In this document: positions 1,754 to 13,233 of the stretch, piece after piece
Position numbering within the stretch: the first letter of the stretch is position 1
How the letters are laid out: every line of letters begins with the position of its first letter
Assembly: GCA_037442505.1 (NCBI GenBank)
Contig: JBBIPZ010000033.1
Location: forward strand, 1-14,750
Direction: 5' to 3'
Length of the DNA: 14,750 nt
Source of the DNA: JBBIPZ01 sp037442505 [NCBI: Deltaproteobacteria bacterium]
GTDB lineage: Bacteria; CALINM01
The notes under the pieces: model-generated
The model's database searches: none
Told to the model about the DNA's origin: nothing
The model's input: only the letters and a program-made list of their open reading frames with translations
Made by a program: the position numbers and the translations under genes

Positions 1754-2050
1754 ATGGAGTTTGTGAATTTTCTTCATGGTTTATTTTTAAATTTTCCTAC
1801 TACTATTGAAACTTTTATTGAAAATCCCTACCCTGTAATTTTAACCGCTTTCTTGTTAATTTTGATTCTCAAAGGCAAATTTGGATTTATTTTCTATTTT
1901 CTGATTTCTCTGTTTATTTTTATAGCTGGACTTTTTTATGGTGTAGTCAATCCTGTTTATTCTGAGATTGTTGGAATATTAGTCTTTGCATCTTGCAGCT
2001 TAGTTTCTATCGGTCTAATTTTGTTTAAATTGTTAGTTAAACACAATTGA
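1754..2050 (+). CDS. Small three-helix membrane protein of unknown function
   Basis: A 98-residue very hydrophobic protein that I do not recognise. Predicted membrane segments are about 27-40, 43-62 and 71-95, with a basic KGK turn between the first two and a basic C-terminal tail (LLVKHN). There is no signal peptide or catalytic motif. ATG 1754 is the first start after an in-frame stop at 1742, but it has no good ribosome binding site, so the start is less certain than the frame. The stop lies 11 bases before the ATG of a membrane-anchored diheme cytochrome on the same strand, so the two are probably co-transcribed. By association it may hold or interact with the cytochrome in the inner membrane. 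That is inference only. Confidence 0.7.
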   Translation: MEFVNFLHGLFLNFPTTIETFIENPYPVILTAFLLILILKGKFGFIFYFLISLFIFIAGLFYGVVNPVYSEIVGILVFASCSLVSIGLILFKLLVKHN

Positions 2051-11891: not shown

Positions 11892-12410
11892 TTAGTTAGT
11901 TTTTTTATCTTTTATTGCATTTAAAACATTCAATAGGCTTCTTGGAACTCCCGCCAACACATTAACAATTCCTGACGTTGGGGATTTGAAGCTGCCAAGC
12001 ATCTTTGCAAGTAACTCGTTGCGTGATGGTAAATTTGCAAGGGTATTTAGCTCGGACAGATTGAAAATCCTTCCTCTGATCGAGCCAACTACAAATTCAG
12101 CCTTGGGTTGCTCTTTTAAAAAGTTATTAAGAACTTTTGCGGGTGGAACAGGGTCATTATACCCCCATAAAGTAACAGTTGGACCAGCAAGATACTCTTT
12201 TATAGAAGCATATTCCGTTCCCTCAATCGCTATTTTTGATAGCGTATTTTTGGCAACTTTAACTTCTACGCCAACTTCTTTAAGCTTTCTTCTGAATCCA
12301 GTGATATCCGCAACAGTCAGCCCTTTGTTTTTAAAGACAAAGGTAACTTTTGCCTCGCTGTAGCGCTTTTTTAAACTCTCAACAATTTTAGTTTTGTCCA
12401 GCTTTTTCAA
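11892..12410 (-). CDS. rplJ: 50S ribosomal protein L10
   Basis: A 172-residue stalk base protein that binds 23S rRNA next to L11 and holds L7/L12 dimers by its C-terminal helix. The N-terminal domain shows the family pattern FRRKLKEVGVEVKVAKNTL (39-57) and the later LAGPTVTLWGYNDPVPPAK segment. The C-terminus (about 135-172) is the L7/L12-binding tail. The start is TTG, with a near-perfect ribosome binding site GGGAGGTGA ahead, and the protein then begins as expected (MKKLDKTKIV). It is preceded by an L10-type leader RNA that probably lets the L10-L7/L12 complex repress its own synthesis. Confidence 0.98.
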   Translation of the reverse strand: MKKLDKTKIVESLKKRYSEAKVTFVFKNKGLTVADITGFRRKLKEVGVEVKVAKNTLSKIAIEGTEYASIKEYLAGPTVTLWGYNDPVPPAKVLNNFLKEQPKAEFVVGSIRGRIFNLSELNTLANLPSRNELLAKMLGSFKSPTSGIVNVLAGVPRSLLNVLNAIKDKKTN

Positions 12411-12414
12411 ATCC

Positions 12415-12423
12415 TCACCTCCC
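12415..12423 (-). promoter_or_regulatory. rplJ ribosome binding site, regulated by pairing
   Basis: GGGAGGTGA on the - strand closely matches the 16S rRNA 3' end and stands seven bases (counted from GGGAGG) before TTG 12410-12408. Its GGGAGG core (12423-12418) is exactly complementary to CCTCCC at 12446-12441, so it can be hidden in a 6-bp hairpin with a 17-base loop. Confidence 0.7.
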
Positions 12424-12437
12424 TTCTTTATTTTGTT

Positions 12438-12465
12438 GACGGGAGGATATCATCCTTAACCCGTC
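12438..12465 (-). promoter_or_regulatory. Switch hairpin between L10 leader and rplJ
   Basis: GACGGG (12465-12460) pairs with CCCGTC (12443-12438), and AGGAT (12456-12452) pairs with ATCCT (12448-12444), with a 3-base bulge and a 3-base loop. No T tract follows, so it is not an intrinsic terminator. It competes with two other pairings: GACGGG is also the 3' side of the basal stem of the L10 leader, and CCTCCC inside the hairpin is also the complement of the rplJ ribosome binding site. Confidence 0.6.
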
Positions 12466-12528
12466 TCGGTAGGCACTTTTAAGTTTTAAACACCTGATTG
12501 GTGTACCTACTTTCTTAGACCAGGGTTA
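12460..12528 (-). ncRNA. L10 leader: autoregulatory mRNA element for L10-L7/L12
   Basis: The rplA-rplJ gap folds like the known L10 leader. The basal stem CCC-TG-GTCT (12525-12517) pairs with AGACGGG (12466-12460). The middle stem GTAGGTAC (12510-12503) pairs with GTGCCTAC (12476-12469), with one G-U. A small hairpin ACACC/GGTGT is at 12490-12504, overlapping the end of the middle stem by two bases. The purine-rich AAGAAAG and CCGAGA strands between the lower stems look like the kink-turn that L10 recognises. The arrangement GTAGGT...GCCTACCGAG resembles the leader known from Bacillus. It is expected to bind the L10-L7/L12 complex and repress rplJL. Confidence 0.82.
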
Positions 12529-13233
12529 TTACTTAAACATGGTCCTAAGTGGCAATGTATCTATCTTTATACCAGGTCCCATAGTAGTGCTGATATAACA
12601 TTTCTTCAGATATACGCCCTTACTTGTAGCTGGTTTTAATTTTATAATGGTTTCGATTAAAGTCTTGAAATTTTCTTTCAATTTTTCTACAGGAAAAGAC
12701 ACTTTTCCGAGGGGTGCGTGAATTATTCCAGCCTTATCCACCTTAAATTCAATCTTTCCTGCCTTTAACTCTTTAACTGCTCTACCTACATCAAAGGTGA
12801 CAGTACCTACCTTTGGATTCGGCATAAGACCTCTTGGACCTAAAATTTTACCTAACTTACCAACCAACCCCATTATATCAGGTGTTGCCACAGCCTTGTC
12901 GAAATCAAACCAACCAGATTGAATCTTTTCAACCAAATCTTCTGCTCCGACATAATCTGCGCCGGCATCTTTAGCCTCTTTTTCTTTTTCACCTTTTGCA
13001 AAAACGAGAACTCTCGCAGTTTTACCTGTACCATGAGGCAATACCACAGCTCCTCTAACCATCTGATCGGAATGCTTTGGATCTACACCCAGATTTATAG
13101 CAACATCAACAGTTTCGTCAAACTTTGCATACGCAGTTTCTTTCACTAAATCAAAAGCTTCGTCTACAGAATAACTCTTCGTAAAATCAACTTTACTTGC
13201 AGCAGAGGCATATTTTTTAGCTACCTTACTCAT
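12529..13233 (-). CDS. rplA: 50S ribosomal protein L1
   Basis: A 234-residue protein of the L1 stalk that helps release deacylated tRNA from the E site. The family signature [16 protein letters not shown] is at 131-146, and the C-terminus [11 protein letters not shown] is conserved. Length is normal. AAAGGAG precedes ATG at a good distance. It follows rplK after 12 bases. In E. coli L1 also represses the rplK-rplA mRNA by binding its leader. The 17-base gap before rplK here is too short for that site, so if such control exists it must use a site inside a coding region. The L10 leader starts directly after its stop codon. Confidence 0.98.

What the first reader, a model, noticed from the sequence alone, without database searches (positions are those of the whole stretch)
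12408..12528. L10 leader linked to a translational switch on the rplJ ribosome binding site
Three pairings share strands. (1) The basal stem of the L10 leader uses GACGGG (12465-12460). (2) A downstream hairpin uses the same GACGGG with CCCGTC (12443-12438). (3) CCTCCC (12446-12441), buried in hairpin 2, is also the exact complement of the rplJ ribosome binding site GGGAGG (12423-12418). The logic would be as follows: when the L10-L7/L12 complex stabilises pairing 1, hairpin 2 cannot form, CCTCCC is free and masks the ribosome binding site, and translation stops. Without free L10, hairpin 2 forms and rplJ is translated. The L10 leader is established knowledge, and in Bacillus it is reported to act through a terminator. 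No T tract is present here, so a strand-swap translational switch is the reading I infer.
Basis: partly seen in the sequence, partly recalled or inferred. Interest (0 to 1): 0.6.

Follow-up and report, generated by a model that had tools for sequence, protein, structure and literature searches.

The report
L10 leader with translational strand-swap switch
The stretch of messenger RNA ahead of a ribosomal-protein gene carries a known kind of protein-binding RNA, and a strand beside it could pair either with that RNA or with the gene's ribosome landing site, which would let the cell shut the gene off when it already has enough of the protein.

Summary
In detail: all four strands sit at the stated minus-strand coordinates between rplA (stop 12529) and rplJ (TTG 12410). 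A covariance model of the L10-binding core built from 29 other leaders finds 12524-12457 at 46.1 bits (E 3.7e-14), its only hit in the window; Rfam RF00557 gives 16.1 bits (cut-off 44). No terminator pattern lies on that strand in 12300-12700. The strand-swap reading is plausible, not proven: shuffled linkers do as well in 2.4%, 2.7% and 6% of cases in three tests, and the predicted default state depends on the 5' end chosen. The nearest kin found (74% in L1) ends inside rplA, so covariation of this exact topology was untestable. Independent support: 8 of 8 loci of one order (phylum of a Nitrospirae-titled genome) carry a strand complementary to both the leader's 3' strand and the ribosome binding site, though folding shows no clear switch in the 7 tested; other clades use the leader's 5' strand, with co-variation in part of the tests. 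Over 154 leaders, forming the L10 site is predicted to hide the ribosome binding site in 41 (27%), against 5.8% with shuffled linkers. A new variant of a known kind.

The parts
12529..13233 (-). rplA (L1, named by gene order and recall); its stop codon abuts the first base of P1
   Evidence: ORF list; relatives by tblastn
12523..12528 (-). P1 outer 5' strand UAACCC, pairs with 12462-12457
12517..12520 (-). P1 inner 5' strand GUCU (kink-turn side), pairs with 12466-12463
12457..12524 (-). L10-binding core (aptamer), with conserved GUC..AGA..GUAGG / CUUAA / CCUACCGAGAC
   Evidence: R1 cmsearch 46.1 bits, E 3.7e-14; Rfam RF00557 16.1 bits, below cut-off
12460..12465 (-). GACGGG, shared by P1 (3' strand) and hairpin 2 (5' strand)
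12438..12465 (-). hairpin 2 (anti-sequestor), 11 bp with UUA bulge, -14.4 kcal/mol
12441..12446 (-). CCUCCC, two-faced strand: in hairpin 2 or paired with the SD
12418..12423 (-). GGGAGG, rplJ Shine-Dalgarno sequence
   Evidence: ends 7 nt before TTG 12410
12418..12446 (-). SD-sequestering stem, 6 bp core, 17-nt loop; occupies the place of the terminator hairpin in the Rfam alignment
11892..12410 (-). rplJ (L10), TTG start
   Evidence: NCBIfam NF000955 167.8 bits
11472..11861 (-). rplL (L7/L12)
   Evidence: TIGR00855 152.8 bits

Best explanation
An L10 leader with a translational expression platform. The nascent RNA first folds P1 and the kink-turn core. If free L10(L12)4 is present it holds P1, hairpin 2 cannot form, CCUCCC pairs with the rplJ Shine-Dalgarno sequence and L10/L12 translation stops. 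If not, hairpin 2 forms by taking GACGGG from P1 as soon as CCCGUC is transcribed and before the SD exists, keeping the anti-SD strand busy so that rplJ is translated. Shown here: the aptamer core by homology, the three pairings by sequence, no terminator pattern, predicted energetics, and a similar or mirror-image architecture in other lineages. Inferred: L10 binding, the direction of control, and that hairpin 2 is reached kinetically in cells.
For: R1 hit 46.1 bits; R1 also finds the E. coli K-12 rplJ leader (23.6 bits, E 7.3e-6 in a 12-locus search). P1 forced: SD unpaired 0.03; hairpin 2 forced: 0.40. At 37 C during transcription P1 is 0.66-0.90 until CCCGUC is out, then hairpin 2 is 0.97 before the SD is made (context from 12560). 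Shuffles: p 0.024, 16 of 600. No terminator or sigma-70-type promoter match on the minus strand in 12300-12700. Same two-faced strand in 8 of 8 loci of the order of G248 (TCCTTTCTCGG: SD face 6-9 bp, aptamer 3' face 6-8 bp), 7 of 7 tested with p 0.012 or less. Across 154 leaders 41 show SD accessibility falling by 0.2 or more when the aptamer is formed, against 179 of 3080 with shuffled linkers; the reverse change in 5 of 154 against 203 of 3080. Co-variation of the competing strand with the aptamer strand in one clade (1 of 2000 permutations as good; 54 of 2000 in a second) and with the SD in two (23 of 2000; 0 of 2000).
Against: No close relative with a readable leader, so covariation was not tested for this exact topology. 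Free RNA starting at 12528 or 12540 is predicted mostly off at 37 C; in the uniform test the window's change is only 0.07, reached by 6 of 100 shuffles. With hairpin 2 formed the SD is still 60% paired on average. The order of G248 shows 0 of 7 changes of 0.2 or more in the folding test. Coevolution tests were not significant in clade C2 (324 and 426 of 2000) or for X:SD in C1 (251 of 2000), and in C4 the tested strand does not face the aptamer (1487 of 2000). Permutations ignore relatedness.
Confidence: 0.6

Rival explanations
1. The SD stem and P1 simply coexist: the SD is masked by default, hairpin 2 is rarely formed, and rplJ is opened by ribosomes finishing rplA (stop codon one base before P1) or by initiation kinetics, with L10 only adding stability.
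For: Free RNA from 12528 or 12540 is predicted 0.86-0.95 P1 and 0.82-0.91 SD stem at 37 C; the rplA stop ends at 12529 and P1 starts at 12528, so a terminating ribosome would cover the P1 5' strand (inference).
Against: With starts at 12560, 12600 and 12640 hairpin 2 is the largest form at 37 C (0.51-0.84), and hairpin 2 is complete before the SD is transcribed. An 11-bp hairpin exactly on the shared strands would be unexplained.
Confidence: 0.2
2. Transcription attenuation as in Bacillus subtilis: hairpin 2 or the SD stem is an intrinsic terminator or part of one.
For: The chain of overlapping structures is like the reported anti-antiterminator/antiterminator/terminator (PMC4538822, sections 3, 14, 19 read), and the Rfam model lays its terminator hairpin on the SD stem.
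Against: No U tract after either hairpin by eye; no terminator-like match on the minus strand in 12300-12700.
Confidence: 0.04
3. Chance: the L10 leader is real, but hairpin 2 and the anti-SD match are accidental results of a pyrimidine-rich linker facing a purine-rich SD; repression works some other way (direct block, mRNA decay, Rho).
For: The chance level is only about 2-6%, with statistics chosen after the leader had been seen.
Against: Two-faced linker strands recur in other lineages more often than shuffles give, with co-variation in some tests.
Confidence: 0.14

Closest known systems
Bacillus subtilis rplJL leader (anti-antiterminator / antiterminator / terminator; Yakhnin 2015, PMC4538822)
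   Same: Kink-turn and UAA-containing L10(L12)4 site; second structure shares nucleotides with the first (8 reported there, 6 here), third shares nucleotides with the second (5 there, 6 here); default on, L10 bound = off.
   Different: The third structure here is not a terminator but the pairing of the linker strand with the rplJ Shine-Dalgarno sequence; no U tract. No leader-peptide gene was looked for here.
Escherichia coli rplJ leader (translational repression by L10(L12)4)
   Same: Related core RNA (R1 finds it at L262:2311-2368); repression at translation; SD sequestration had been proposed (statement in the introduction of PMC4538822).
   Different: The binding site is distant from the ribosome binding site (128 nt from the R1 match to the annotated rplJ start) and the mechanism is called unresolved (PMC10931766, passages read). 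In the window the core ends 46 nt before the start.
Leaders of the order of G248 (in the phylum of the genome of L019, titled Nitrospirae), found here: L172 L173 L177 L178 L184 L185 L188 L196
   Same: One linker strand (TCCTTTCTCGG) faces the aptamer 3' strand CCGAGA and the SD region.
   Different: The shared stretch lies further inside the aptamer (CCGAGA rather than GACGGG) and is invariant, so it shows conservation, not co-variation; the folding test shows no clear SD change (0 of 7).
Rfam RF00557 L10_leader
   Same: Same RNA family by position and core sequence.
   Different: The window scores 16.1 bits, under the cut-off of 44.

Membership tests
L10 leader (L10-binding RNA upstream of rplJ) | conserved L10-binding core (GUC..AGA..stem / CUUAA / CC..CCGAGAC) | tested here: met
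   R1 built from 29 other leaders: 46.1 bits, E 3.7e-14, 12524-12457
L10 leader (L10-binding RNA upstream of rplJ) | lies directly upstream of rplJ on the same strand | tested here: met
   rplJ TTG 12410, NF000955 167.8 bits
L10 leader (L10-binding RNA upstream of rplJ) | kink-turn geometry and unpaired UAA | tested here: inconclusive
   letters present and aligned; three-dimensional geometry not tested
L10 leader (L10-binding RNA upstream of rplJ) | binds L10(L12)4 | not testable with these tools
   needs a binding assay
Rfam RF00557 as curated | bit score at or above gathering cut-off 44 | tested here: not met
   16.1 bits; no hit at threshold. So not filed as an RF00557 match; filed as an L10 leader by R1
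Bacillus-type rplJL attenuator | intrinsic terminator (GC hairpin plus U tract) before rplJ | tested here: not met
   no terminator-like match on the minus strand in 12300-12700
Bacillus-type rplJL attenuator | three overlapping structures, the second excluding the first and the third | tested here: met
   P1 and hairpin 2 share GACGGG, hairpin 2 and SD stem share CCUCCC; by sequence and prediction only
Translational SD-sequestering switch | a strand complementary both to the SD and to a strand of the ligand-binding stem | tested here: met
   sequence, p 0.024; not tested in the laboratory
Translational SD-sequestering switch | SD accessibility falls when the ligand-binding stem forms | tested here: inconclusive
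   predicted 0.35 in the context 12560-12380 but 0.07 in the uniform test
Translational SD-sequestering switch | co-variation of both alternative pairings in relatives | tested here: inconclusive
   no close relatives; mirror-image clades show it in part

The most novel reading that the evidence does not exclude
The L10 aptamer is one conserved sensor attached to several independently evolved translational strand-swap platforms. In some lineages (window, order of G248) the two-faced strand competes for the aptamer's 3' strand; in others (class of G130, order of G094, part of the class of G072, Geobacteraceae L004 and L005) it competes for the 5' strand, and in some of these the sequence before the Shine-Dalgarno copies the aptamer strand (GACAGAAAGG against CAAAGACAG), so that one strand can pair with either copy. 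This would make translational control by strand exchange a common form of the L10 leader outside Bacillota and give a testable model for the unresolved E. coli case.
Probability: 0.5. Interest if true: 0.62.

Novelty: new variant of a known kind. Interest (0 to 1): 0.5.

Why it matters
L10 autoregulation is experimentally resolved as attenuation in B. subtilis (PMC4538822), while the E. coli translational mechanism is described as unresolved and other phyla as open (PMC10931766, passages). A compact leader that keeps a Bacillus-like chain of structures but replaces the terminator by an anti-Shine-Dalgarno strand suggests how one RNA sensor could pass from transcriptional to translational control, and offers a short construct for testing it. 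It also shows that the Rfam model misses at least this clear L10 leader.

Tried and rejected
Attenuation was considered and rejected for lack of a terminator pattern. The sister-group placement next to the phylum of G007 (L030) rests on FastTree runs.

A first swap test misplaced the Shine-Dalgarno sequence in several leaders and was replaced. The column 'P1 forbidden' is not used: it gave nearly the same values as P1 forced, a sign that the constraint was misapplied. In one search some rows (for example L133 and L245) were poorly placed by the aligner but were kept in the counts. Leaders with an rplA-rplJ gap outside 40-700 bases, or in which the core was not recognised by my pattern, did not enter: 66 of 169 entries and 3 of 58 had no recognised core, among them the Deferribacterota-type leaders (except L163) and 9 of the 22 loci of the phylum of G007, which by eye do carry one. 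L089 and L121, duplicates of other loci, were left out. Opposite sign: L163 (-0.42), L242 (-0.31) and 3 of 16 in the alpha/beta group at -0.2 or lower; no mechanism is claimed for these.

Papers: PMC4538822 read in outline and sections 3, 14, 19; PMC10931766 two passages; others seen only in search listings. In those listings I saw no description of this design; the library holds open-licence papers only.

Full report
WHAT IS THERE. The 118-base gap between the rplA stop (12529) and the rplJ TTG (12410), minus strand, holds the finding. rplJ and rplL were matched to named families; the names nusG, rplK, rplA, rpoB and rpoC are from gene order, size and recall, and the first four had tblastn relatives in the loci. 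A tRNA-Trp lies at 14525-14451.

IDENTITY OF THE LEADER. Rfam's L10_leader gives only 16.1 bits (cut-off 44), so I built a covariance model (R1) of the L10-binding core from 29 leaders upstream of rplJ in other genomes, the window left out. R1 finds 12524-12457 with 46.1 bits and E 3.7e-14, with no other hit in the window up to E 10. As a control it finds the E. coli K-12 rplJ leader at 23.6 bits, E 7.3e-6. At E 0.01 it matched 32 of 80 loci, 19 of 53 (20 rows, one locus twice) and 30 of 60; the 29 leaders it was built from are among the first two. It is blind to some leaders that carry the core by eye, such as most of those of the phylum of G007. Many other loci have a short rplA-rplJ gap and no room for a leader.

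PAIRINGS AND FOLDING. P1 has 10 bp, hairpin 2 has 11 bp (-14.4 kcal/mol) and the SD stem 6 bp (-10.3). P1 and hairpin 2 exclude each other, as do hairpin 2 and the SD stem; P1 and the SD stem are compatible. With P1 forced the SD is 3% unpaired, with hairpin 2 forced 40%. At 37 C growing transcripts from 12560 keep P1 (0.66-0.90) until CCCGUC is out and then switch to hairpin 2 (0.97) before the SD is made. The final balance is delicate: at 37 C hairpin 2 is 0.02-0.10 for RNAs starting at 12528 or 12540 and 0.51-0.84 for starts at 12560, 12600 and 12640. The true 5' end is unknown; no sigma-70-type promoter match was found in 12300-12700 (0 found, mean 0.9 in shuffles), so co-transcription with rplKA is likely but inferred.

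CHANCE LEVEL. Shuffling only the linker, the smaller of the two duplex strengths (linker strand with SD region, same 16 nt with aptamer 3' strand) reaches the observed 11.7 kcal/mol with p 0.024 (2000 shuffles). The fall in SD accessibility on forming P1 (0.35, context 12560-12380) is reached by 16 of 600 shuffles, and SD access of 0.1 or less with P1 together with P1 of 0.1 or less when free by 6 of 600. In the uniform test used for all leaders (32 nt upstream of the core's AGA) the fall is only 0.07, reached by 6 of 100. So the window alone is suggestive, not conclusive.

RELATIVES. A tree of NusG, L11, L1, L10 and L12 segments puts the window beside the 23 rows of the phylum of G007, to which L030 belongs (SH support 98; 99 with L030 alone in the rpoB-containing tree), with L133 and L107 nearest by path.

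SAME ANATOMY ELSEWHERE. In the order of G248, 8 of 10 genomes gave an rplA match; all 8 loci have the linker strand TCCTTTCTCGG, whose two faces pair with the aptamer 3' strand (CCGAGA or TGCCGAGA, 6-8 bp) and the SD region (GAGAAAGGA in 6 of 8; 7 bp in L172, 6 bp in L177). The linker around it varies in length and sequence. Seven were, all with p 0.012 or less. Against: in the folding test 0 of 7 fall by 0.2 or more, and with no variation in the strand there is no co-variation.

MIRROR-IMAGE ANATOMY. In other clades the two-faced strand competes for the aptamer 5' strand. In the class of G130, L133 and 7 of 8 newly fetched loci (L254-L261; L258 has no leader) have CCTTTCTGTCTTTG-like strands that pair with 7-9 bases of CAAAGACAG of the aptamer, and with GACAGAAAGG at the SD in 5 of the 8 leaders (9 bp in L133, 8 bp shifted upstream in L257, only 6 bp in L256). 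Many leaders of the order of G094 look alike; there L249 changes strand and SD partner together (own duplex -12.3, with others -10.4 kcal/mol), L238 changes both too but its own duplex is weaker than with others (-10.7, -13.5). In one group of the class of G072 (C3, 13 distinct pairs) own pairs of aptamer strand and linker strand beat exchanged pairs (mean -16.7 against -14.9 kcal/mol; 1 of 2000 permutations as good), and so do linker strand and SD (23 of 2000). In the phylum of G007 (C4) the linker-SD pairing co-varies (0 of 2000, only 3 distinct SD sequences), but that strand does not face the aptamer (1487 of 2000). C1 (order of G094 with L107 and L133): aptamer-linker 54 of 2000, linker-SD 251 of 2000. 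C2 (other group of the class of G072): 426 and 324 of 2000, not significant (all). Permutations ignore relatedness.

OVERALL SIGNAL. Of 98 testable leaders among 101 distinct ones, 16 have a 3'-strand swap and 23 a 5'-strand swap at p 0.05 or less (about 5 expected each; the leaders are related, so these are not independent). Of 154 usable leaders of 156 distinct, 41 lose 0.2 or more SD accessibility when the aptamer is formed, against 179 of 3080 shuffled-linker controls (5.8%); 5 gain as much, against 203 of 3080. By group: class of G072 15 of 28, order of G094 with L107 and L133 8 of 30, other loci of the phylum of G005 5 of 18, phylum of G007 1 of 13, order of G248 0 of 7, alpha/beta set 1 of 16 (3 of 16 in the other direction).

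KNOWN OR NEW. The B. subtilis rplJL leader works by a chain of three overlapping structures with a terminator as the third (PMC4538822). That paper says SD sequestration had been proposed for E. coli, and PMC10931766 calls the E. coli mechanism unresolved and other phyla open. The window keeps such a chain but ends in SD pairing. I therefore file it as an L10 leader, new variant, and not as a Bacillus-type attenuator. My searches listed no report of this design, in an open-licence library only.

Noticed in passing
12528-12531: The rplA stop codon is immediately followed by the first base of P1, so a ribosome terminating on rplA would cover the P1 5' strand; this could couple rplA translation to opening of rplJ.
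   Followed up: no
L133, L254, L255, L259, L260, L261 leaders; many of L225-L253: The sequence just before the Shine-Dalgarno copies the aptamer's own strand (GACAGAAAGG against CAAAGACAG), so one linker strand can pair with either.
   Followed up: partly
L081-L102, L030 leaders: A long pairing between TTTTCTTTTAAATT in a hairpin and AATTTAAAAGAAA before the SD, changing on both sides in a subgroup (TTTCATTTAAAT with ATTTAAATGAAA); a separate TTGACGT element is complementary to the aptamer 5' strand in many.
   Followed up: partly
L063, L069, L077 (alpha/beta group), L163, L242: Leaders with an L10-type core where forming it is predicted to open the SD rather than hide it.
   Followed up: no
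L078 (QNVH01000102.1): Contig filed under an archaeal bin encodes bacterial NusG, L11 and L1, in L1 and L11 the closest to the window of the loci compared (74% and 73%); probably a binning error.
   Followed up: no
L009, L021, L057 leaders: By eye these Negativicutes leaders have a hairpin followed by a T run before rplJ, as expected for Bacillus-type attenuation.
   Followed up: no
L136-L164 leaders (phylum of G006): Very short rplA-rplJ gaps with a divergent core (GGTTGAAGAAGCAGG..CCTGCGGAAACCGG) and a second copy of the 3' strand (GCCGGA..) close to the SD; mostly not recognised by my core pattern, so left out of the folding tests.
   Followed up: no
window 1754-2050 (+): 98-codon ORF without a match in NCBIfam or Pfam at E 0.001, between a PaaK-like ligase gene and a ParA/MinD-like ATPase gene.
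   Followed up: no
window 12403-12537: Rfam RF00557 scores this L10 leader at 16.1 bits against a cut-off of 44, and lays its terminator hairpin on the SD stem.
   Followed up: yes
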